Shown: positions 2,671 through 40,401 of the stretch, piece after piece
Position numbering within the stretch: the stretch's first letter is position 1
Layout: the number at the start of each line of letters is the position of its first letter
NCBI GenBank assembly: GCA_037952775.1
Contig: JBANAY010000004.1
Span: 5,828,001-5,892,000 of the forward strand
Direction: 5' to 3'
Length of the DNA stretch: 64,000 nucleotides
Source: Clonostachys chloroleuca
Taxonomy: Eukaryota > Ascomycota > Sordariomycetes > Hypocreales > Bionectriaceae
Made by a program: the position numbers and the translations under genes
The notes under the pieces: model-generated
Databases searched by the model: none
What the model saw: the letters and a program-made list of their open reading frames with translations, nothing else
What the model was told of the DNA's origin: nothing

Positions 2671-3671
2671 CTATTGGTTAGATGTAGGTATAAAAAAGAT
2701 TGCTCCCTCTAGATAACTCGTAATCAAAATTCAATATTGTTCCGTTTATCTTGAAGTAACATTAAAGTTTAGCTTTATTACGAGTAATTAGGCTAATCAT
2801 AATACAATAAGTAGATTTTCAACTTGAGCATAGAAGGGAGCACTCAAAACTAGGTTCCGTTCCACAGATGGCAGGTTGCTATTGATGCATTGTACCAAGG
2901 CATCGACATTTCTGATCCCACCACCTTTACCCATCCATGTTGCTCAAGTACGCTTCTCTTCGATTCTATCCGAACAGCGTATATTCAACATAGCACAACT
3001 CTAATGTGGTGGACGACGAAATTATCATGGTAATCGAGATTCTCGGGCTTCCACAATATGTGAGGAGGGTTATGGTATGAAACGGCGGCCCGAATTCGCC
3101 GGCTCAATTCTCTAAGCAAGCTGGCTATTTGTGACCCTGGCTAATCACAGCATGAAAAATGCGTACTGATTCGTCAGCTATTAGAAAAATGCAATTTATG
3201 CAGGATCCACCGGGCAAGGGATGCCATGGAGTCCACGGACCGTGTCCAGGAATCTGTGTGTCATTGTGGATGACGAGGTATTGAAACAAAACAACGGCAT
3301 AATAACAACAATCGAGGAAAAGAAGAGAGAACAAATCCAAAGGATTGATCCCAGTGGCTGATGTCGTATTAGACTGCGGGAAACCGGCACGACAACTTGA
3401 AACACCAGTTTACGCACTCAGGGGTTTGGATGGATGGTTGCGAAAACCAGTTCAATTGATGTGGCTTTGCGCCCAATGGGACTATGATTGCTTCAACGTT
3501 TATCAATCCTTAAATATATCAGGTTCTTATTGTTTTTTTCTTCTCTGAACTTGAATAAAAGACTTGAACTAGACTCTGGGCCGAGTGTTAGGATGTCTTG
3601 CAAATGCTAAGCGATTTCAAGGATCCTTCGTCATATCCTTATTCGATGGCGCTCGGCGGATTTTCCTCCAA
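2671..3671. other. Intergenic, no gene seen
   Basis: AT-rich 3' flank of the NACHT gene followed by about 1 kb with only short ORFs on both strands, none with family resemblance or a plausible intron model. The only structured piece nearby is the stop-interrupted minus-strand ORF that follows. Confidence 0.5.
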
Positions 3672-4187
3672 TCAAGGTTGGGTACTACCTGGTAGATCGA
3701 CATACTGATTAAAATCAAGCTTTTGCAAACCAGGCTGAGCGGAGAATTCCATTAGCAGTAATTTAACATAATGTCCCGCTCCATGTTCCAACATAGGATC
3801 AGGAGACAGATGTCCGAGGGATCTCTCGCCCATTGAGAGATAGCGTGGAAACACGTCTCCATTAGCCAGAATAGCGTACTCTGTAGATCTCTATGGCATA
3901 TGCCAATCAAATGTCAGAGAAGAAGTAATTACTGCCCTACCAGTCACTTGAACCCCTGACGCTGTCACAGTCCTTGGCGAGGGGTGCCAAGTCGATTCGC
4001 GATAGACAAGGCGTGCTCGGCCATCCACCTCGGAGGTTTTCCCCCGCTCAATTCCAGCAAGTGCCGATGACTGACGATTTAGTGCCGGCATATGGTGTAA
4101 TACTGCGAGGGTTTCATGATTACGCGTCGCGATAGTCTTCGAAACCATCAATGAGTGTTGCTCCACCAATTGCAATTCGGCCGACAA
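3672..4187 (-). pseudogene. Unrecognised ORF broken by one in-frame TAG
   Basis: On the minus strand one frame runs from about 4187 to 3672 (about 170 codons), interrupted by a single TAG. Just before the stop it reads TFDWHMP. Just after, in the same frame, it reads RSTEYAILANGDVFPRYLS and continues to a second stop after PGSTQP. A CAG-to-TAG change would explain the break. I do not recognise the family. The composition (GHLSPDP, HGAGHYVKLLL) is protein-like on both sides of the stop. No convincing ATG or upstream exon was found, so this is probably a relic of a longer gene. It could also be a chance long frame. Confidence 0.4.
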
Positions 4188-4422
4188 AGTCCAGTCTAGA
4201 TTCCGACTAGAAATTGGTGATGCCGATCAGAAGAGGAGTGATGGCGACGTGTCGCTATCTGATTCTGATCTCATGGTTGGACGACGTCAAGGACTCCTGT
4301 ATATAAGGAGACGCGTTCTCCTGTTGTCGAAAACATTCCTCAGATCAGTACAGTCTTTCGACCACCATTCGCCTACTCCTCTCAACGTTTTTTTGACGCT
4401 TATTTGACGCTTATTTGTAACG
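4188..4422. promoter_or_regulatory. Promoter of the tetrapeptide-repeat gene (TATA box)
   Basis: A TATA-like element (TATATAAG) lies at about 4300, about 120 bases before the start codon of the secreted repeat protein. It is followed by pyrimidine-rich sequence (CTCCTCTCAACG), typical of highly expressed fungal genes. The very end holds the 11-bp tandem duplication listed separately. Confidence 0.5.
4392..4413. repeat. 11-bp tandem duplication before the start codon
   Basis: TTTGACGCTTA occurs twice head to tail, ending 9 bases before the ATG of the secreted repeat protein. It would lie in the 5' leader. It may be replication slippage; no function is implied. Confidence 0.75.
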
Positions 4423-5277
4423 ATGGGCCGCTCTCTTTACCTTCTTTCAATCGCGCTGCACCTGTCTAGCAGCTGGGCTGCTCCTCAGTTCAGCAGTGGT
4501 GCTCCTGGGCTCCCTAGCGGACGTCCAACCGACTTCCCCACGGGCATTCCCACGCCAGGTCCGCCTCCTACTGGCCGTCCCACGGGCATCCCGAGCGGTA
4601 TTCCTAGCGGTATTCCCAGTGGTGTCCCGAGCGGTATCCCAAGCGACGTTCCCAGCTCTGACCTTGAGGTACGCCAGGTACCAACACCAACTGGTATCCC
4701 AACTGGTTGGCCCACTGGCATTCCAACAAGCTGGCCCACCGAGATCCCTACTGGTTTCCCAACCGGCTGGCCAACCGGCCGGCCAACTGAAATTCCTACT
4801 GGCTTCCCAACCGGTAGACCTACCCCGAGCGGCATCCCTAGTGGTATTCCAAGCGGCGCTCCTACCCCTGATCTTGAAGAACGCCAGGTACCAACACCGA
4901 CTGGTATCCCAACCGGTTGGCCCACTGGCATTCCAACATACTGGCCAACCGACTTCCCAACTGGCTGGCCAACTGGTATTCCTACTGGCTGGCCCACTGG
5001 CCCCGTCCCTACTCCCTCCGGGCCTGGCGGGCCTCCCACCGGCCGCCCTACTGGACCAATCCCCACTCCCAGCGGCATTCCCCGAGGCCCTTCCAACGTC
5101 GATGATCTAAATGCCGTGGCTGCTGCTACTAGTGGGCCTGGTGGCCCAGTGCACACTCCTCACCCTTCTCACACTGGTCCTCCCCCTTCAGTCTCTCACT
5201 CTAGCCGTCCTGTCCCTACTCCTGGCCCTCCCCCATCGTCGGGCTTCCACACCCGCACCCGAACTGCGACCCTATAG
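4423..5277 (+). CDS. Secreted Pro/Thr/Gly tetrapeptide-repeat protein
   Basis: Single exon, 284 residues. Residues 1-20 form a signal peptide (MGRSLYLLSIALHLSSSWAA). Nearly all the rest is a four-residue periodic repeat of the form P-[TS]-[GED]-[IWFRV], for example PTGIPTGWPTGIPT and PSGIPSGIPSG. Two spacers, SDLEVRQVPTPTG (about 84) and PDLEERQVPTPTG (about 154), start two near-identical larger modules, so the gene grew at two repeat scales. The tail is rich in Pro, Ser and His and ends TRTRTATL; no GPI signal is seen. The regular Pro suggests an extended, polyproline-like, probably O-glycosylated wall or surface protein. I do not recognise the family. The repeat also produces long open shadow frames on both strands; the signal peptide, TATA box and leader support this frame. 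Confidence 0.8.
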   Translation: MGRSLYLLSIALHLSSSWAAPQFSSGAPGLPSGRPTDFPTGIPTPGPPPTGRPTGIPSGIPSGIPSGVPSGIPSDVPSSDLEVRQVPTPTGIPTGWPTGIPTSWPTEIPTGFPTGWPTGRPTEIPTGFPTGRPTPSGIPSGIPSGAPTPDLEERQVPTPTGIPTGWPTGIPTYWPTDFPTGWPTGIPTGWPTGPVPTPSGPGGPPTGRPTGPIPTPSGIPRGPSNVDDLNAVAAATSGPGGPVHTPHPSHTGPPPSVSHSSRPVPTPGPPPSSGFHTRTRTATL

Positions 5278-5970
5278 CGGGTTACCCCGTTTCTCTGGGG
5301 AGAGAATGCTTGGCGACATGGCCGGTGTGCTGCCATCCTGGACTTCTGACTGTGGTGGGCACTACGGCTGAAGGGGCTACGCGGTACATGCCACAGGGAA
5401 ATAGGTTCTTTTGTGTTCTTTCCTTCTTTTGCTACTGTTAGTGATGATTTAAGGGCTGCACGTTTAGGCCAACTTGAAGGGTTGATTGTGATTTTATACA
5501 TAAAAGCACAATGATCAAGGATTTTCACTTCTCACACTCCTTTTTTATTACCTTCCTTTTTCAATAAAATCCATTTGAGAACTCCCTCTTTATATCATTA
5601 CTCATTCCTCAAACCAATTTTACTCGACCAAAATGCGCGGTTCAGTGCATGCTCGTTGGGGGCCGGGGTCTTCTTTTTTCCTGTCAAGTAACTTTTGCTT
5701 TGTAATCTATACATTTTCGTGTGCTGGTTCGATTTCAGTATCTCAGGATTGTTAAGACTGATAAGATGAGCCACCGTCCGGCAATTCTTAAGAGGCAAAT
5801 TTCCGCGGAATTCCAGGAAAGAACGGTACCGTGTCATATATTTTCTGTATGTAGGATGATGGCGCCATCAAATGCAATTTTGATTACCGAGTTGTAAGCT
5901 CGGGCCGATCTGCCCTGATGATCAGATCGTCGCTGTGCTTCTCATGAGGTTCCCGCTAGACTTTACGTCA
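5278..5970. other. Intergenic between converging genes
   Basis: Holds the 3' flanks of the repeat-protein gene (plus) and of the alpha/beta hydrolase (minus). AT-rich runs lie near 5540-5600. No gene was recognised. Confidence 0.5.
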
Positions 5971-6841
5971 TTAACAGGTTTCTGCAATCTTTACAAGCCA
6001 GTCGACAACCTGTTCCTGCATGGAAATGTGCGGGGCATGATCTCCAGCAACAGAAGTGACTCCAACTGCCTTTCCAGAATACTTTTCCAATCTTTCAATG
6101 CCCAATCGCTGATTCTTCGGTGAAATTACTTTATCATTCTCGCTGAAGAGCACCTCAAGAGCGACCTCTGGGATCGTGTAACTGAGAAAAGTCACCTTGC
6201 TACCAAAGGCTTTCGAAGAATGTTGAGCGGTCTTCCTCGCCCATGCCATTTGCTGGTCCTTCGGAAGGTTTGAAAAAACTAGAAACCCAGAATGGGCGTA
6301 ATCGATTGGGTCTATTTTCAACCATCCATCATCCTAGACAGAGATATCAGCTTTTTTCCACCAGCTGACCACAGGCAAGACATTGTCGGGATGAGCAGGG
6401 CAGACAAACGTCGCAGTCCATTGGAATAACATGGTCCAGCGGCACATCAACCAAAATCTCGGTTGAGGCTTGATCTAGTTGGGGAATTATTGACGACATG
6501 TAGGCGAGTGTAGCAAGGCCGCCACTTTTGCCTTTGCGCTCCCGCTCGACCCTGCCCAGTCCCTCACAGCTCTGCGTTTTGGGAACACCGGAGTACGAGC
6601 TGGAGACAAGAATGACGTCTCTGCCCTCGTCGGCAAGCCTCTCGACTTCTTGAGAAATAGCTGCGGCGTCATCGAACATATCGGGCAGTGGTCGGTGATC
6701 ATCCGGTCCGAGCCGCACGGAAGGTAGTGGAAGTACGCGGGCATCGATGCCACGTTTTATCACGGCATCCCGGACATCGAAATAAATTTCGTCGGAGGCA
6801 AAAGAGCCCGGCAAAAAGACGACCGTTGGCTTCTTTGTCAT
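5971..6841 (-). CDS. Alpha/beta hydrolase with non-canonical nucleophile elbow
   Basis: Two exons, 6841-6410 and 6333-5971; 264 residues. The intron of 76 nt starts GTTTGT, has a GCTGAT branch site and ends CTGTCTAG. It joins PMDCD to DDGWLKIDP in phase and removes a stop. The start is the ATG giving MTKKPTVVFLPGSF; an upstream ATG at 6868 would add nine residues. Family features: an N-terminal VVFLPGSF strand-loop, a nucleophile-elbow region VSSSYSGVP, an acid in LFSENDKV and a catalytic His in AGDHAPHIS. The usual G-x-S-x-G is S-S-S-Y-S here, so both elbow glycines are replaced. The Ser-Asp-His triad itself can be placed. Substrate unknown; probably a cytosolic esterase-like enzyme. A relative with a canonical elbow lies at 29640-30484. 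Confidence 0.8.
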
Positions 6842-7717
6842 TTCCTTCGCAGAGAAAATCAGCAGCAAGTTCCTGGTAATATAATTATCAATTGGCTTAC
6901 CGTGGTGGGTGAGGGATGTTTCATTGAATTTAATGAGACGTGCTTCAATTCACAGAGGTAGCGGAATGCGGAGTTTCAGGCAGTGGAATCAGTGGAGCCA
7001 GCGCACAGAATTAGCGGTCAATTTTCCACTGTCTCTGGCATTCATTGTTATGATAATCACGTGACACCCTCGAGCATCAATCCCATCGCCCACCGCACTC
7101 TTTTTTTGATCCAACAAAAACTCATCCGCCTGTGGCGAAGCTAATCTCGTTGATTTTTTTCTATTTTCTTTTCTTTTTTGAAAATAGTTTTTAGACGTGC
7201 TAACTTGAATACGGGAGTTGAGAGTTAGCTCCAGCAGAAATTTTGACTTGGTAGCGAAAGTACGAAAGCAACTAGAAAATTAGATCTGATGTTAGTCACA
7301 ATTTGGTTATTTTCAATTCAGTAGATCCAAAGTCTTACCTCGGGGAACCACTATGTAATCTAGCCATCCATAGAATTAAATTAAGTGTGATACTGGCTCA
7401 ATATATAAGGTAGATAACAATGCCTGGTGTGTAAGTTGTAGGGTAGGCTGCAAGCGAAACGACCTTGGCAAGATTGGGTTAGCATTATGTTGATATCTGT
7501 GACTTACATAAGCGTGGTCACGGGACATGGGAACCAATCTGTCGCCTTTCATAAAAGCACCATCGTGCCGGTTGCCGCTGCTGCTGATAAGGGACATTGC
7601 GACGCTTTTGTCTCAATTCTTCGCCCCTTGATCTCACCCGGACCATCAAGCGCATTGAGGGATTGAACGGCTCCATCTACGACGATATCGGCAAATGACT
7701 CTGCCGTAGTTTTCGCC
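6842..7717. other. Divergent promoter region
   Basis: Shared upstream sequence of the alpha/beta hydrolase (minus) and the Zn2Cys6 regulator (plus). It contains a T-rich stretch near 7100-7190. No gene was recognised. Confidence 0.5.
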
Positions 7718-9967
7718 ATGGGCGGTCGACTTCCATCGCGGCCTATGACGTTCACAGGGTATGCGGGCATTTGTTTGGTCCCCCGGTTTTCCTCCATCCC
7801 ACCACCAGGTCCCTGACGTGCTAACACGACTAGATGCTGGACATGCAAAGCACGAAAGATAAGATGTGACGAGACACCAGTGTCTTGTAGGAACTGCGAA
7901 AAGAAGGGTGTCGCGTGCGGTGGCTATGGGATCCGGCTGCAGTGGGTCTCAGACCCGTTTACGCAACCTGACAAACAAGCTGGTGGCACTGGAGGCCGCA
8001 GAAGTATTAAACTAGGTGATTTGCTACCCTCTCCTGTCTTTTAAGCTTTCAGTTTCCTCCTCTGGAAGCCATAGGCTAACCCCCTCGACAGACAAGCTGA
8101 GTGGGCAGCGATATCGTCTGGACGACATCGACGGCTTCCTGGGTGTCATTGATGGGGAAGCCGTATCAAGGGAATCCGTGAGACATGGTCCCTTCTCAGT
8201 CTTCCCAGTCCAACCGAGTGATATTGGTGGATCGAGTACGGAAGACGACTCGGTCTCACTAGCCATCACCCCTGATCCTCTAAACCCTCACGACAGTGTT
8301 GCCCAAACTCGGCAGGAATGGGACTATGAGGACTACGCTGTGGATCTAAACGAGAACCACTCGTCATATTTACCAGTCACTGTGCCAATAGCACAATCAG
8401 AAGAGGAGCGAGTTATCGATCAGAGCCAGGTTGGTCAAGAAGATAGCCTAACCATCGCCTCGGATGAACTGGATGGAGTGTTGGATCCCTATCTGAATTC
8501 TTCTACCCCCGACATCAGCCAAGACCAAAACTTCGGTAGCGAGTTGGTCGTTTTCCAAAGCACTAGCCACAACGAAACCTCCTTTGGTTCGCCTGTTCGA
8601 ACGCTGGCCGAGGATTTCCTTCGGCATCCTGCCTTGCCCCGCAACCCACGTATCACCTTATCCGGAGACGTCGAGATAGACTCCCTCATCGACCATTATA
8701 TGATTCACGTTGCTGATATTCTACAACCACTTCTTCATCCGCAAAACCAATACCGCTCACGCGGCTTATTCCTCACCTCAGCACTCCAAGGCGCAATTAA
8801 GAACATCCTGGACCCAACCGAATGTACCCCCACCATTTATTCCACGCTATTCCACTCGGTACTGGCATCAGCAGCTTACCATCTGTGGAATCGAAATAAG
8901 TATTATGCCAGATATAAAAGTTTAGGGGTGGCGCATCAACAGAATGCCCTCAGCTCGTTGAGAGTCGCCATGCAATCACCCGCAAGTGGTGCAGACTACA
9001 AGACACTCATGATGGCCATGCTGTCCCTCGTCACCATTGGGGTAGGTAATCAGAGCCCGAGGTTTAGGAACAGGAGCTTACTATTTGATAGGTTGTATCT
9101 GGCGACGGCGCAGATTTCCAAGTTCATCTCGGGGCAGCGAATCAGTTACGGAATTCTCGTAACCGATGGAGGGTCGTCAGCAGCCAGACTCGGCAAGTAA
9201 ACGAGATCAGCTTTTTTCTGTCCCTACTCACGAGGACGCTTGCTTTTCAACCTTCATCTACGACTTGGTCTGGGAGAGAGCAACAGACCCTTGATGAAGA
9301 AATGGATCTGGTCCAGTCTAATACATGCTTCGAGTTCATGTACGGAATCACACCCGTCATCGCGGGAACCATCCTGGAAATGTGTCGCCTGGGAGAATAT
9401 CTTTTACGCTTTCAGCAAGATGGCGGTAATAGCTCTTCCATACCTGATGATCTACTTGAAGCTTGCGAGTCGCTGGGAGAAAAGCTCCTGTCTTGGAGAT
9501 TTGAGTTGGAGACGATAAGCTCGATCCAGGCCAACGACGTGTACATCTCCACCATATTTTACCACCAAGCCCACGCATGGCACCACGCAGCCCTCGTATA
9601 TTATTACAGGAGAATACAGAGCTGGAAGAGCGCAGACCTGACCCAGGAAATACAACACACGATGGAGCACATGCATGCCGCCGAGGATTCGAAGATGATG
9701 CCCGGATCCCCCAGGCAAGGTCTCATGGCACCCCTTACTTGGCCCGCCACCATCGCTTCTCTTGACGCCATTGGTGCTCAGCGAGATATTTGTCGAAGAT
9801 GGTGGGAGCGGGTGCTGAGTTACGGGCTTGCGAATATCGACAAGCAATGGGACGTCGTGCAGCAGGTCTGGGAAAGGGTCGACGAATTGCGGCAGTGCCA
9901 CGGTGTTGGTGCTCCAGATGGGATGACTGTTTATCGCAGCTTGGATATTCATATTTTGCCCGTGTAA
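7718..9967 (+). CDS. Zn2Cys6 transcription factor, ARG81/ARCA-like
   Basis: Four exons: 7718-7758, 7834-8015, 8092-9041 and 9092-9967; 682 residues. All introns (75, 76 and 50 nt) are GT-AG and in phase; the first ends in GCTAACACGACTAG. The N terminus reads MTFTGCWTCKARKIRC, a Zn2Cys6 cluster with six cysteines (CWTC, C at +7, then CRNC and a final C), followed by GGYGIRLQW. That tail is typical of the arginine-metabolism regulator II (ARG81/ARCA) group. The rest fits a Fungal_trans_2 domain, e.g. LRVAMQSP, SGDGADFQVHLGAANQL and a C-terminal WERV region. It would act in the nucleus. It converges on the ureohydrolase gene 145 bp away, so that gene is a natural candidate target. The exact pathway is inferred. 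Confidence 0.9.
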
Positions 9968-34324: not shown

Positions 34325-37300
34325 TTATACACCATATTCATCAATAACACTCCTTGATTCAGCGAATCCATCGCCCAATCCCACAGGTGCCATCTTTAAG
34401 CCAAATCCTTCCGGACCACCAACCTTCATCCCCTTCTCCGTTTTCCAAAGCGGGTGCGCTGGCAATGCAATGACATTAACCCTAAGCCCGTACCGTAGAT
34501 CTTGGGACCCGATCGCTTCGCCATCTTGGCCAAGAATCGAAATTAGATCAGGCACTGTGCAAACAACTTCCTCTGCTGCCTTCTCGCTTCCATCTGCCAC
34601 AGGATCAGTGAGAGCTGCGTACAGATACTCATTCTGAAAGGGTATGATCATATGCTTGTCTGTGGCTATTGTCTGGCTAGTATGGTTGGAGCTTGACGAC
34701 TCGCGGTCGTCTTCACTGAGGGGCGCGATAGTCACAGATCCCATGGTGTAGCCCCCGCCAATGAAGCGGCGGACGTCGACGATTTTTCCTGTAAAAAGAA
34801 GCTTTCCAGCACAGACATCAAACTATGAAAAATGAAAAAAGTTAGTAAAAGTCTAGACATAGAGGAATAGAGGAAGAATTAAGGGTTAAAGGGGCAGGTA
34901 TCAGTGTTCTGACTTACAATCGCGTCCACGTAGCTGGTCTTCTTTCGCCGTGCTAGGTGAACAGCGCGGCCAAGATACCACGAAAGAGACAAAGTGTTGG
35001 GGATACCACAAGACTTGATGGTCGATCCAGGTAGTGGATTAGCACACACAGCGCAGCCGAGGCCAAGCTCGATAGCTGACGTTCGCAGGAGACTTTCCAA
35101 TCGAACAGGGTTGTCCACATTCTAGTACAGAAACAAATTAGCTAAGGGCGCGAGCCCAAAGGAACTCCGGCAAGGTGCCATACCATAATAATTGAAGTGT
35201 TTCCCCGAGCATCAGAGAGAGCACACGGCGTGAGCGAGTACCCGTAAACACTAAATATTGCTACTCAAGTTTCAGCAGACTGGAGGGTTAAATGCGAAGG
35301 CTGGAGAACTTGACTCATACCGTGATACATGGTAGGATAAGCTCTGCCCATGGCATCGCCATCAATCACAGGAACATCAAAGTAAACACTAGAAGGGAAA
35401 ACGCTCATTCCATTGCCACCTCCGCTGTGTTGCTGTTAGTGAGAGGTATCTTAAAGCTACGCTCGATAACGAGGGAAAGGACTTGTGTGTATTGTGACTT
35501 ACATTTCGTCGATATAAAGGCCATCAAAAGTCTTGTTGCCAAGAACCTTGTTAAGAGCTTCGATACCTGTGGCAATTTCCTTGCCTCCCGCGATACGCTC
35601 ATTGATAACACTTGGACTGCCATACCAGGAGCCAAAGCAAACCGTGTCGTCATCCTTAAGAGACTTTGGCGAAATGATTCGCATCTTGCCTCTAGGACTA
35701 GATCGCAGAGCTTGCAAGCTCTTGAGGAACTCATGGTGCGTAGGGCCACCTCCACCGGTCCCTAGCACACCACAACCTGTGGCAAACATCTCCAGGTCAA
35801 CTTCAGACACGTACCAGACGCCATCTCGTACTTCCGGCCGATATGTCTCCAGATCAATTTCAAGAGATGGCTTAGTGGTAGGTGTTAGAGCGTCGGCGAC
35901 ACTGATTTTTTGGCCCTCATCTTCTTCGACATCACTGTCGGCCTCGACAGCTAGGGTTGATGAAGGAAAAGTGAGATCATCCGGGATGGACAGGCGTCCA
36001 ACAGCCCGGATCTGGATTCTCGTGGCGCCATTGTGCATGTACTGCAACGGCATCTTGTTTATCTCCACAATCTGGACGTCCTCCGGGGCGGCACCCTTCT
36101 CGATTGCCAAGTCAATAGCCTTTTTGCAAGCAGCGTCAATCATTTCCTTCTCGGAACGTCCTTCAGGGATCTCCACGACGTCGATCTCGCCTGAGACTTT
36201 TGCAATGGCAGCACCAACAGCATTGGCAGCCCCTTGATGTATAGGACGCAGACACTTCTCCACGCCGTCCAAGTCTTCTGTGACCAAGAGAGCACCGCCT
36301 CCGACCAGTAGGACGTGGACAGGTGCAGCAGAAACCTTCATTTGCTCGATTACTCCTTCCAGCATTCTCTTTATTTCTTTGCGTGCGTTTTCAACAACCG
36401 AGGCAGTGACATCTTGTACGAGTCCCCTGTCACCTAGTTCGGCTTTACCCAAAGCGACAATAATGTCACTGGTTGTCAGGGTCTGTCCACCAAATACTTT
36501 CGCTTCCTGTTTGAGGTAGTGTCCAACAGAGCCTGGTCCGACGGTGACAGAGCCATCCTCAGCCACACGGACCTTACTTCCTCCACCCAACCCGATGGAC
36601 AAGACTTCAGGCATAGAGAATGCTGTTCGCACCCCACCGACCTCAACAAAACCAGGAGCCTGGCGAGGAAATCCAGAAGGCAGGAGAGCACACACATCTG
36701 TGGTAGTACCTCCAATGTCCACGACAAGAAGTTGTTGCTGTTCCTGCTGCTGTTCGGTTGAGGAATTGTTGTCCTTCCGGGCCTCCCTTTGATGGTCAAT
36801 GCCAGCGAGGAAAGCAGCACCAGTCATACTGTTGGTTGGTCCGCTGGCAAATGTCTTGATTGGGTACTCAGCAGCTGCGTCGGCGTCAATGAGCGTCCCA
36901 TCGTTTTGCGAGAGGTACAGCGGGCATGAGAGGTTCAGCCGCCTCATGGCACGCTGAAATCCCCTCTTTACCCTATGGCCAGTGCGCAAGATGGCAGCGT
37001 TGAGGATAGTGGCATTCTCTCTCTCCAATAGGCCAGTTGGACCAATATCATGCGAACACACAACATGGAGATCTGGCGCTTCTTCAAGTAGGATGCGCTT
37101 ACACTGCTCCTCGTGGGCGCCCTCATGATCTAGAGGAGAAAAGATGCCAACCAAGGCGATAACCCTCACGCCAGAAGCAACGACATCCCTGGCTGTTTGG
37201 CGGATCTGCTCAGGGTTTAATGGAGCTATCTCACGACCATCGATCTCGTGGCCGCCATCGAGATAATACGCACCCCCGTCAAGGATGGTTCTAAGACCGA

Positions 37301-37634
37301 CAGGAAAGTCAGAGAACGGCACAATTTGTCTAGCAAAGGGCCCGCAAAGACGTACAACAGCGACACGATCCAGCCTCCTCGCGTCAGCCTCGACAAGAGC
37401 ATTGATGAAATGTGTAGTTCCAATCGTGACGCTCAACACGCGAGTCTGGTCGACTTGCGACTCCTGCAGCACAGCACGGATGGCAGACTCGATGCCACTA
37501 GTTATGTCTGGGGTTGTCGAGGCCTTGTGTGAAGCAAGAACACCTCGGCCGGGGCTGTCAGCAGCCCTGATATCAAGGATGGCGGCATCCGTGTTGGTGC
37601 CGCCCACGTCAACGCCAATGCGGTAGAGAGACAT
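34325..37634 (-). CDS. Hydantoinase/oxoprolinase fused to DUF917
   Basis: Five exons: 37634-35503, 35424-35321, 35260-35184, 35121-34918 and 34822-34325; 1004 residues. All four introns (78, 60, 62 and 95 nt) are canonical and in phase. The acceptor of the second was chosen to keep NTSIIMNVDNP in frame. The N half (1 to about 530) is a hydantoinase A/5-oxoprolinase ATPase-type domain: YRIGVDVGGTNTDAAILD, TIGTTHFINALVE, LVVDIGGTTTDVCALLPSGF and VLLVGGGAL. From about 620 the C half shows EMFATGCGVLGTGGGGPTHH and continues as DUF917, the family of S-methyl thiohydantoin desulfurase. The enzyme should open hydantoin or 5-oxoproline-like rings with ATP; the DUF917 part may add another step. It is divergent from an NCS1 permease that could import the substrate. 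Confidence 0.92.
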
Positions 37635-38216
37635 ACGGATGGGAGCAAAGGGAATCTATGCCGGTCCAGCAGAAAGCGCAGACAGAGAAATTCATGTCGT
37701 TCTTGTACTTGATCACCGAACTCGCCGCGGGTATTCAGAGCCCCACGGCTAGTTCATGCGAATATCGCCTCAACGAAGACGAGTCGTCAAGTTGGCCGAT
37801 GGTGACGAGATTAGGTGACATCGGCGAACCGAAGTTGGCCGATCAGCGCCCAAAATCGCTCGTTACAGCGGCCCACCACCCCTGATGACGAACTACACGC
37901 GCTGCGTGACCGCTCTGGCACGTGAAGTTGGCCGATCGCAAAACTAATCAAACTCTCCACTCCTCCCGTCATTTTTTGGTCGCGATCTAAAATCAGCCTA
38001 TCTCTGTCTCCAGTCCACTCGATCCTCCGCGCCTCGGTCAACGGCAGTTGTAATCCACCACCCACCCTCGCTTGGCGCAAGTAGAGACGAGGAGACAGAG
38101 GAAGGCAGCATTTCGAGTATCATATTTAATTTGGTGCTCTCCCAGCGCCCAATATCCATCTCTACTCCTTTCTTCCGCAATTCTCTCTATTACCCCTATT
38201 TCTCCCATTCGACTTC
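37635..38216. promoter_or_regulatory. Shared divergent promoter with repeated 12-bp motif
   Basis: The 582 bases between the hydantoinase and the NCS1 permease hold three copies of AAGTTGGCCGAT in the same orientation, at 37789-37800, 37832-37843 and 37925-37936. The last two extend to GAAGTTGGCCGATC. A GATA-type core (AGATAG) is on the minus strand near 37998. The motif is a good candidate for a pathway-regulator site; its protein is unknown. Confidence 0.7.
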
Positions 38217-40401
38217 ATGATGGATGTAAAATCGCTGCTAAAGCGCATTGAACTGCCCCACGGCTCACGATGGATTGTATGTTCTCCATCTCTCTCTCCT
38301 TCACTGAAACATCTTACTCGCGTTCTTTCAATTTCCGGGACTGACTTATCTTGTTTCACGCGTACAGAATGACGACTTGCGCCCGATCGAGACCGAGAGA
38401 CGCACATGGAATTTTCTAACTTTCCACAACTATTGTATGTCTTGATATCACTATACATTTCGGCCACATTCAAACCATAGAATCTATTTCTGACATAGCC
38501 AATAGGGCTGCTCGTCAATTGCAACATCGCGACCTTTCTAACCGGCAGTGCTCTGATTCCACTTGGTCTGACCTGGTGGCAGGCCATCATTGGTATGTAC
38601 ACTGTCAACCAACCCTCACCGTATGAAAAGTCCATCTTCCCTGACACGTAGACCAGCTATTGTTATCGGGAATATTCTTGCCACCACTGCGCTTGTACTC
38701 AGCTCCCTTGCCGGAGCCTATTACCACGGTATGTAGCCTCCCACTCCATGTCTTGATCACTTAATCTAAACAAGTCCTTCTCGCCACAGTTGGGTTCTCT
38801 GTCTATAGTCGAGCAGTATGGGGTGTCTGGGGCTCCCAGTTTGTCATTTGGAATAGAATTTTCCTCGCATTCGGTATGTCTACTCAATCGTATCTGTACC
38901 CAATTCGCCGTGTCTAAGCTAACTTATCGACCTCTTCATAGTTTGGTATGTTCACGCCGATGGATCTCTTCATCCATACCACTTCTAACTTCGACGCGAT
39001 ATAGGTATGGCTTTCAATCATGGGTTGGCGGCGAGTGTATATACTTGATTCTGCTTTCCTGGGACCCAAATTATGAGCAACGGATCCCAAACACGATACC
39101 CGCTGAGACAGGCATGACTTCGGCCCAGTTTCTCGCCTACTTCATTTTCTCCATTATCAGTCTCCCGACCCTCTGTATCAGACCTCATCGCCTGCAAAAC
39201 TTCTTTTATTTTGCCAGCGCAGTGACGTTGATCTTCTTCATCGTCCTCCTTATCTGGGCTCTGGCTACCATGGGCCCCTCGGGATTCGGAAGCACACTTG
39301 ACTCGACTGCCACTCTTCCAATCACAGGCGGGCCCTACAGCACCGTTTGGTTGATGATTTCAGGTATCATGTCCACTGTCGGCTCCATCGCTGCCGGCAT
39401 TCTTAACCAGAATGACTATGCTCGTTTCGCCACCAAGCCCCGCGATGCCATCTGGGGCCAAGTTCTTCCTTACCCTCTGTACAGCATCTTTGCCTCGGTT
39501 CTTGGTATCCTAGTCACGGCTGCTACCCAGGAACGGATGGGAGGCGAGGCCATCTGGAACCCTCCCACGCTTTTCGTTCGCCTTCTTGAACAGAACCCCA
39601 GCGCCGGGACACGGGCTGCTCTCTTCTTTTCTGGTCTGGCACTCTGCATCTCTCAGATCGGAAGCAGTCTGCCTGGGAATGCGCTTGCCGGGGGCATTGA
39701 CCTCTCAGCTGTGCTTCCACGATACATCAACATTCGCAGGGGGGCCTTCATCGTCGCGATTCTGAGTCCCATCGTCAATCCATGGCGCCTGGTGAACACA
39801 GCGACTATCTTTCTCACTGTTTTGTCAAGCTACGGTATTTTCCTTGCACCCATGACAGGTATTATGGCCTCGCAGTACCTCCTGGTCAGTAAGCAGAAGG
39901 TCAACGTGGATGACTTGTACCGTGGTGATTCTCGGGGTACATATTGGTATACCAAGGGTGTAAACTGGCGTGCCCCCTTATCCGTGAGTGTTTGTCTCCT
40001 AAGCCTACCACCCGAGTGTTCACAAGCTAATAATATTCACACGATAGTGGGTTGCTGGCGTTATACCACCATTGCCCGGGTTCATTGCCGCAGTCAATAC
40101 ATCCGTGACAGTCAGTGACGGGGCCACCGAGCTTTACTATCTAAACTATCTATTCGGTTTTATCGCCAGCGGTCTTCTTTATTGGGTCCTGCATCTCATA
40201 TTCCCTGACGAGAAGTCCGATGAGTTTGTGCGCAACAGCCAGGATGCCAAGACGCTCCAGCAGCTGTATCACACCCGGTGGGACGTAACCCTGGCTGAGA
40301 CTTGGGATCTACTGAACGAGCCGGCTGTGGTGACTTTGACTGAGGGAGGTAAAGAACCTACTGTGACTGTGGGGGTGTCAAAAGTACCCCAGATTGCGTG
40401 A
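38217..40401 (+). CDS. NCS1-family permease (Fur-type: uracil/allantoin/hydantoin)
   Basis: Eight exons: 38217-38276, 38368-38434, 38506-38592, 38657-38728, 38790-38873, 38942-38945, 39005-39983 and 40048-40401; 568 residues. All introns are GT-AG and in phase. The sixth exon is only 4 nt (TTTG). It is needed to give RIFLAFVWYGFQSWVGGECI, a core motif of NCS1 transporters, and without it the frame is lost. About 12 membrane segments follow, with NQNDYARFATKPRDAIWGQ and LPGNALAGGIDLSAVLPRYI being family-typical. It should import a purine, pyrimidine, allantoin or hydantoin with protons or Na at the plasma membrane. Substrate is inferred from its divergent hydantoinase neighbour. Two adjacent ATGs open the frame. 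Confidence 0.92.

What the first reader, a model, noticed from the sequence alone, without database searches (positions are those of the whole stretch)
34325..40401. Hydantoinase-DUF917 fusion and NCS1 permease as a divergent uptake-and-degradation module
A 1004-residue protein joining an ATP-dependent hydantoinase/oxoprolinase domain to DUF917 shares one promoter with a Fur-type NCS1 permease. DUF917 is the family of a sulfur-removing thiohydantoin enzyme, so the fusion could act on thiohydantoin or hydantoin compounds taken up by the permease. The pair is a compact candidate pathway. The hydrolase and transporter families are known, but this linkage and its substrate are inferred.
Basis: partly seen in the sequence, partly recalled or inferred. 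Interest (0 to 1): 0.75.

Follow-up and report, generated by a model that had tools for sequence, protein, structure and literature searches.

The report
Fungal ring-opening enzyme beside its importer
In a soil fungus, a two-part enzyme that probably uses ATP to open small nitrogen-containing rings sits back to back with a likely importer for its food molecule, an arrangement that recurs in many fungi and in some bacteria, but what it eats is still unknown.

Summary
A spliced gene (37634..34325, minus) encodes a 1004-aa HyuA-DUF917 fusion; 582 bp away, divergently, lies an NCS1 permease gene (38217..40401, plus). The genome is a Clonostachys (fusion 98% identical to C. rhizophaga). The orthologue scores 46-50 bits against desulfurase cut-offs of 440-450, seven conserved positions are all replaced in six true desulfurases, those have no HyuA neighbour, and the genome gave no urocanase hit. 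New here: 20 HyuA loci of this genome split 13 with HyuB and 7 with DUF917, none with both, so DUF917 probably replaces HyuB as the hydrolytic half of an ATP-dependent cyclic-amide hydrolase. The shared promoter carries three direct copies of a 12-mer found only 20 times in 59 Mb. Substrate unknown; hydantoin-like rings are the best guess.

The parts
34325..37634 (-). Gene for the 1004-aa HyuA-DUF917 fusion; exons 37634-35503, 35424-35321, 35260-35184, 35121-34918, 34822-34325
   Evidence: splicing and translation; Pfam; homologues over full length
35949..37634 (-). HyuA (ASKHA kinase-like) half, about residues 1-562; phosphate motifs DVGGTNTD (res 9-16) and DIGGTTTD (res 306-313), Lys37, SGP (264-266)
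34325..35801 (-). DUF917 (S-Me-THD-like) half, about residues 612-1004; positions E679, E710, N715, D734, D762, E780, Q902 shared with HyuA-partnered relatives
37635..38216 (.). 582-bp divergent intergenic region
   Evidence: between the start codons of the two gene models
37789..37800 (+). AAGTTGGCCGAT copy 1, candidate operator
   Evidence: 20 copies in the whole genome
37832..37843 (+). AAGTTGGCCGAT copy 2
37925..37936 (+). AAGTTGGCCGAT copy 3
38217..40401 (+). NCS1 permease gene, 568 aa; exons 38217-38276, 38368-38434, 38506-38592, 38657-38728, 38790-38873, 38942-38945, 39005-39983, 40048-40401
   Evidence: splicing; PF02133; homologues
38942..38945 (+). 4-nt microexon (TTTG) that completes the substrate-site motif VWYGFQSW
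   Evidence: gene model; disrupted gene models at the same place in relatives

Best explanation
A co-regulated uptake-and-hydrolysis module for a small cyclic amide or ureide, most likely a hydantoin-like ring. The NCS1 permease imports the compound. The HyuA half binds ATP and activates a ring carbonyl by phosphorylation, as proposed for 5-oxoprolinase and caprolactamase. The DUF917 half, standing where HyuB stands in those enzymes, adds water to the activated carbon and opens the ring. A pathway-specific regulator binding the three 12-mer copies would switch both genes on together. Shown here by computation: gene structures, domains, conserved linkage, conserved phosphate motifs, the HyuB/DUF917 exclusion in this genome and the repeated promoter motif. 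Inferred: phosphorylation, ring opening, transport, substrate class and the regulator.
For: Domains and full-length relatives. ATP-site residues D9, T13, D16, K37, D306, G308, T310 and D313 kept in 16 of 16 fungal orthologue rows and 65-66 of 66 prokaryotic rows, matching the CapA motifs described in PMC8453981 (passages). Confident model of the 98% orthologue (pLDDT 89.6, pTM 0.89) whose halves match ATP-dependent carboxylase/caprolactamase/N-methylhydantoinase subunits and 2o3i. HyuA loci in this genome: 13 with HyuB within 5 kb, 7 with DUF917, 0 both, 0 neither. HyuA in 75 of 80 prokaryotic DUF917 loci; HyuB found in 2 of 80 with one HyuB query. Transport genes recur there: Opp/Dpp-type ABC parts in 29-45 of 80 depending on the part, NCS1 in 9 of 80. 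Fungal linkage. The permease profile's only solved relatives are Mhp1 hydantoin transporter sequences; Mhp1 residues Trp117, Gln121 and Asn318, which bind the hydantoin (passages of PMC4195764, 57), align to W, Q and N. Promoter repeats.
Against: I found no characterised HyuA-DUF917 enzyme, so the reaction is inferred. The adenosine motif GxxPGP of CapA-type enzymes is absent here and in the related HyuA rows. Of four paralogue rows of this genome in that table only two show D9; the others are incomplete or misaligned at the N terminus. None of the strictly conserved DUF917 positions is histidine, unlike the Asp/His metal site of CapB. The Gln121 position is Thr, Asn or Ser in 27 of 67 relatives readable there, and Mhp1 Trp220 is not kept, so transported substrates may vary. 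GATA-factor sites are not enriched. Four of the seven fusion loci in this genome have no permease hit within 8 kb.
Confidence: 0.6

Rival explanations
1. Thiohydantoin or S-methyl thiohydantoin desulfurase fused to a hydantoinase: DUF917 removes sulfur, HyuA then opens the hydantoin.
For: PF06032/PF20906 are named S-Me-THD-like; NCBIfam equivalogs for two such enzymes exist and are matched weakly by the orthologue.
Against: 50.1 bits against 450 and 45.8 against 440. E679, E710, N715, D734, D762, E780, Q902 are replaced in 6 of 6 true desulfurases by P/A, Q, S, V, A, S, M. Six 19-kb stretches around them show no HyuA hit; in the one examined gene by gene the desulfurase sits with ErtD, ErtE, a thiourocanate hydratase and an aromatic-lyase-family gene. 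No urocanase hit in this genome.
Confidence: 0.06
2. A 5-oxoprolinase of glutathione turnover, as PMC8683091 assumes for a C. rosea hydantoinase/oxoprolinase gene (passage).
For: HyuA domain; the 6yra chain labelled 5-oxoprolinase and other family members share fold and ATP motifs.
Against: No HyuB half; the genome has 13 separate HyuA+HyuB loci for such chemistry; the neighbour is an NCS1 carrier.
Confidence: 0.08
3. The natural substrate is a cyclic dipeptide or another peptide-derived ring rather than a hydantoin; the chemistry is otherwise as in the best explanation.
For: Peptide-type ABC transporters and, in 11 of 80, an AroM-family neighbour in prokaryotic loci; DUF917 and AroM are enriched in gene clusters with cyclodipeptide-oxidase genes (PMC11055893 passages).
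Against: NCS1 carriers handle nucleobase-size rings (established knowledge of the family); Mhp1 ligand residues kept.
Confidence: 0.14
4. The permease and the enzyme are neighbours but act on different compounds.
For: Four of seven fusion loci lack a close permease; Gln121-position variation.
Against: Linkage in many fungal genera and in bacteria of three groups of the HyuA tree.
Confidence: 0.08
5. An ATP-dependent carboxylase of the acetone/acetophenone type.
For: Best structural matches of the first half include carboxylase subunits.
Against: No HyuB-like carboxylase partner domain in the protein; the same fold also occurs in hydrolases.
Confidence: 0.04

Closest known systems
Caprolactamase CapAB / 5-oxoprolinase / ATP-dependent (N-methyl)hydantoinase (HyuA+HyuB)
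   Same: HyuA half with both phosphate-binding motifs and the conserved Asp/Lys/Pro residues; same fold
   Different: HyuB half absent and DUF917 in its place; GxxPGP adenosine motif absent
Thiohydantoin desulfurase (NF058529, in an Ert-type ergothioneine cluster by NCBIfam names) and S-methyl thiohydantoin desulfurase (NF058532)
   Same: DUF917 family (PF06032+PF20906)
   Different: 24-26% identity to the four desulfurases aligned; conserved site residues differ; no HyuA nearby; standalone protein of about 365 aa beside a thiourocanate hydratase
Prokaryotic HyuA-DUF917 gene pairs with NCS1 or Opp/Dpp transporters (also L. rhamnosus WP_005715297-WP_005715299, by consecutive accessions)
   Same: Same two enzyme halves, same conserved site residues, sometimes the same transporter family
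   Different: Encoded as neighbouring genes in most loci seen (fusions were not looked for systematically); function not described in the passages read
Mhp1 hydantoin transporter and fungal Fur-type NCS1 carriers
   Same: Mhp1 is the only solved relative of the permease profile; W117, Q121, N318 equivalents kept
   Different: Trp220 equivalent not kept in the alignment; coupling ion and substrate untested
CV_3147 of Chromobacterium violaceum (PDB 2o3i)
   Different: Labelled hypothetical protein in the PDB; 21% identity

Membership tests
ATP-dependent hydantoinase/oxoprolinase (HyuA+HyuB) | HyuA N-terminal and core domains | tested here: met
   PF05378 105 bits, PF01968 92 bits
ATP-dependent hydantoinase/oxoprolinase (HyuA+HyuB) | Phosphate-binding motifs DxGGTxTD and DxGGT | tested here: met
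   motifs as given in PMC8453981 (passages)
ATP-dependent hydantoinase/oxoprolinase (HyuA+HyuB) | Adenosine motif GxxPGP | tested here: not met
   GHYLKQ at that place; also missing in the aligned relatives
ATP-dependent hydantoinase/oxoprolinase (HyuA+HyuB) | HyuB half (PF02538), in the protein or next to it | tested here: not met
   not in the protein; nearest PF02538 hit on the contig about 171 kb away
Thiohydantoin / S-methyl thiohydantoin desulfurase equivalogs | Score above curated cut-off | tested here: not met
   45.8 vs 440 and 50.1 vs 450 on the 98% identical orthologue P0001
Thiohydantoin / S-methyl thiohydantoin desulfurase equivalogs | Conserved residues shared with true members | tested here: not met
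   seven positions differ from 6 of 6 NF058529 members; no NF058532 member above cut-off was found to compare
Thiohydantoin / S-methyl thiohydantoin desulfurase equivalogs | Upstream (thio)urocanate hydratase in the genome | tested here: not met
   no PF01175 match (six-frame search, strongly split exons could be missed)
DUF917 / S-Me-THD-like | PF06032 and PF20906 above cut-off | tested here: met
   183.5 and 205.8 bits vs 27
NCS1 permease | PF02133; TIGR00800 cut-off | tested here: met
   323 bits on the window protein; 362.5 vs 353.1 on the 97% orthologue P0121
Allantoin permease equivalogs (NF008476, NF047713) | Score above curated cut-off | tested here: not met
   169 vs 620 and 130 vs 800 on P0121; these models serve bacterial and archaeal annotation
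Hydantoin transporter (Mhp1-like) | Transport of hydantoins | not testable with these tools
   needs uptake assay; ligand residues W117, Q121, N318 kept

The most novel reading that the evidence does not exclude
DUF917 of the HyuA-partnered branch is a second, unrelated solution to the job of HyuB: an undescribed class of ATP-dependent cyclic-amide hydrolases shared by fungi, bacteria and archaea, often with its own importer, here under a dedicated regulator that reads AAGTTGGCCGAT and serves scavenging of ring compounds, possibly from prey fungi.
Probability: 0.3. Interest if true: 0.75.

Novelty: new variant of a known kind. Interest (0 to 1): 0.5.

Why it matters
Relatives of this fusion are very common (3194 of 7997 scored candidates matched at E <= 0.001, by no means all of them shown to be fusions; the 120 listed rows carry the hydantoinase and DUF917 domains together) and many are named hydantoinase or hydantoin utilisation protein; I saw no function shown for any of them. 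The pattern found here, DUF917 in place of HyuB with a neighbouring importer, gives a concrete reaction type, a candidate residue set and a two-gene knock-out that would assign a function to the branch, and it warns against carrying over the desulfurase label.

Tried and rejected
Ergothioneine/thiohydantoin route: tested through urocanase, aromatic lyase (one hit), NCBIfam and residues; not supported. Literature on the desulfurases: searches listed no paper on them (one search listed 30 of 33), so the NCBIfam names are the only source seen. Finding true desulfurases: with NF058532, 0 of 45 genomes over cut-off and 0 of 398 (its control rang nowhere); with NF058529, 6 of 398.

Nitrogen control by GATA sites: one HGATAR in the 582 bp, no enrichment in the window as a whole (174 found, 178 expected). 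The 12-mer as part of a dispersed repeat: rejected, flanks of the 20 copies look unrelated. The 12-mer as a genome-wide regulon: of the 17 copies elsewhere 10 lie inside ORFs of at least 100 codons. Two lie about 150 bp upstream of ORFs, a PF02133 carrier (L101) and a Sde182 nucleoside-hydrolase-like protein (L111); the carrier has no meaningful BLASTP match to the window permease's orthologue. A third, 161 bp before an aldehyde-dehydrogenase ORF (L112), is probably inside that gene because the ORF starts in mid-domain. This is only a lead.

Limits of the comparisons. The 80 prokaryotic loci are the best 80 of 565 and were found by the peptides LGTGGGG and DxDxMGRA, so conservation at D732/D734/M736 is partly built into that sample; the other six positions of the seven are not in those peptides. 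In one search I used 106 of the 120 fungal hits (motif and length filter) and 72 of 134 prokaryotic DUF917 ORFs (340-420 aa, within 300 bp of HyuA). Shared contigs are equal lengths of each cluster's longest contig; two permease rows without a length were left out. The first ORF picking missed frames and was replaced. Neighbour families were named from one representative each. In the tree the label count compares NCS1-linked bacteria with fungi only; that they fall in three groups (Bacillota, Actinomycetota, Acetobacteraceae) is my reading of the printed tree. The second look by fold barely tested parts outside residues 8-557 except for 2o3i. Counts of HyuA, NCS1 (22) and DUF917 (7) loci are my merging of the exon hits; two weak HyuB fragments lie away from any HyuA.
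Full report
What is there. The window lies in a 59.4 Mb genome held as four contigs; the fusion is 98% identical to a Clonostachys rhizophaga protein and the permease 97% to one of Bionectria ochroleuca. Splicing four introns gives a 1004-residue protein on the minus strand from 37634 to the stop at 34325. It carries Hydant_A_N, Hydantoinase_A, S-Me-THD_N and S-Me-THD_C, and no Hydantoinase_B. On the plus strand, eight exons from 38217 to 40401 give a 568-residue Transp_cyt_pur protein. One exon is only four bases long (38942-38945). The start codons are separated by 582 bp.

Is the linkage real. Names show consecutive locus tags in 12 assemblies: Neonectria magnoliae, Fusarium decemcellulare, F. 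sp. NRRL 66182, F. torreyae, F. austroafricanum, F. zealandicum, Cylindrodendrum hubeiense, Aspergillus hancockii, Cordyceps sp. RAO-2017, Trichoderma viride, Verticillium longisporum and V. albo-atrum; a thirteenth, a second V. albo-atrum assembly (ACHAQH_005820/005819), uses a fusion hit. In Ophiocordyceps polyrhachis-furcata the two tags are 16 apart. Orientation is not known for these. In the window's own genome a second pair is also divergent (L009: permease minus 2902-4954, fusion plus 5551-8803); matched segments are 31-44% identical for the fusion and 28-48% for the permease. A third fusion, on the minus strand, has an NCS1 gene on the plus strand about 7 kb away with other genes between. 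So 3 of 7 fusion loci have NCS1 within 8 kb, against 0.04 expected.

Bacterial counterpart. A scan of prokaryotic species genomes with a DUF917 alignment gave 80 loci, the best of 565. A HyuA frame was found in 75 of 80, and both were called in 74. Recurrent neighbours, named from one representative per family, are Opp/Dpp-type ABC parts, AroM (11 of 80), and NCS1 permeases in 9 of 80, each next to HyuA or DUF917. A HyuA tree puts the 20 fungal rows on one side of a branch. A paper on Lactobacillus rhamnosus lists hydantoinase/oxoprolinase, DUF917 and cytosine permease with consecutive accessions WP_005715297 to WP_005715299 (passages of PMC7513527).

Not a thiohydantoin desulfurase. NCBIfam holds equivalogs for thiohydantoin desulfurase and S-methyl thiohydantoin desulfurase; the orthologue scores 45.8 and 50.1 bits against cut-offs of 440 and 450. 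Six of 398 genomes had a true member of the first. Their 19-kb neighbourhoods show no HyuA (0 of 6). In the one examined gene by gene (L131) the desulfurase sits with hydantoin-5-propionate amidohydrolase ErtD, N-carbamyl-L-glutamate amidohydrolase ErtE, a thiourocanate hydratase and an aromatic-lyase-family gene, an ergothioneine-utilisation set by the NCBIfam names. At seven positions (E679, E710, N715, D734, D762, E780, Q902) 72 of 72 prokaryotic HyuA-adjacent DUF917 sequences agree with the window, as do 102-106 of 106 fungal rows, while all six desulfurases differ. D734 lies in a peptide used to find the prokaryotic loci, so its conservation there is partly built in; the other six are not. 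Two divergent paralogues of this genome keep E679, E710, N715 and D734; D762 and E780 are each kept in one of two, and both have K at Q902. No urocanase was found.

Permease. The profile of 30 relatives finds only Mhp1 among solved structures at E 0.001. Trp117, Gln121 and Asn318 of Mhp1, which bind the hydantoin ring (passages of PMC4195764), align to W, Q and N of the window protein; Trp220 is not kept. At the Gln121 position relatives have Q in 40, T in 23, N in 3 and S in 1 of 67 readable among 70 intact sequences, so specificity may differ between fungi.

Regulation. AAGTTGGCCGAT occurs three times, same orientation, within 148 bp of the shared promoter (37789, 37832, 37925; none of 100 shuffles had three) and 20 times in the genome against 3 for the reversed control. 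Flanks look unrelated. HGATAR sites are not enriched.

Expression lead. In C. rosea facing Botrytis cinerea or Fusarium graminearum, six genes were induced by both prey; two are a hydantoinase/oxoprolinase (2.7 to 16.5 and 16.5 RPKM) and an NCS1 uracil permease (5.3 to 50.0 and 82.3) (PMC5999205, section 3.1 read whole). Their numbers (BN869_T00005393, BN869_T00013396) are not consecutive, which speaks against their being neighbours, and I could not map them to these genes.

What is known. DUF917 proteins were called experimentally uncharacterised in PMC11055893 (passages), although NCBIfam now names two desulfurases in the family. Among the papers listed by searches (lists capped at 20 of 37, 20 of 27, 30 of 33 and 40 of 96) I saw no title or abstract describing this fungal pair; the library lacks most subscription journals. 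The fusion itself is widespread and annotated; what is added here is the conserved pairing, the exclusion of HyuB, the residue evidence against a desulfurase and the promoter repeat.

Noticed in passing
window 38942-38945: The permease gene has a 4-nt microexon inside the substrate-site motif. In the public relatives, 50 of 120 gene models fail an intact-motif pattern here (at least two, P0179 and P0224, only because of the pattern), many with extra or missing residues at this place, so the microexon is probably conserved and often mis-annotated.
   Followed up: partly
L101 3001-3012 (minus) and L111 2001-2012 (minus): Two of the 17 other genomic copies of AAGTTGGCCGAT lie about 150 bp upstream of ORFs: a distant NCS1 carrier and a Sde182 nucleoside-hydrolase-like protein.
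   Followed up: partly
L010 and L011: A diverged fusion paralogue lies near a Fungal_trans regulator, a 2OG-Fe(II) oxygenase, a zinc dehydrogenase and an NCS1 gene, so it may be part of a larger cluster.
   Followed up: no
P0218, P0229 (Colletotrichum): Two permease gene models are joined to a Fungal_trans domain (PF04082), suggesting a transcription-factor gene next to the permease in Colletotrichum.
   Followed up: no
PMC5999205 Table 1: A hydantoinase/oxoprolinase and an NCS1 permease are among only six C. rosea genes induced by both prey fungi.
   Followed up: partly
G000: The genome holds about 20 HyuA loci and about 22 NCS1 loci by my merging of exon hits.
   Followed up: no
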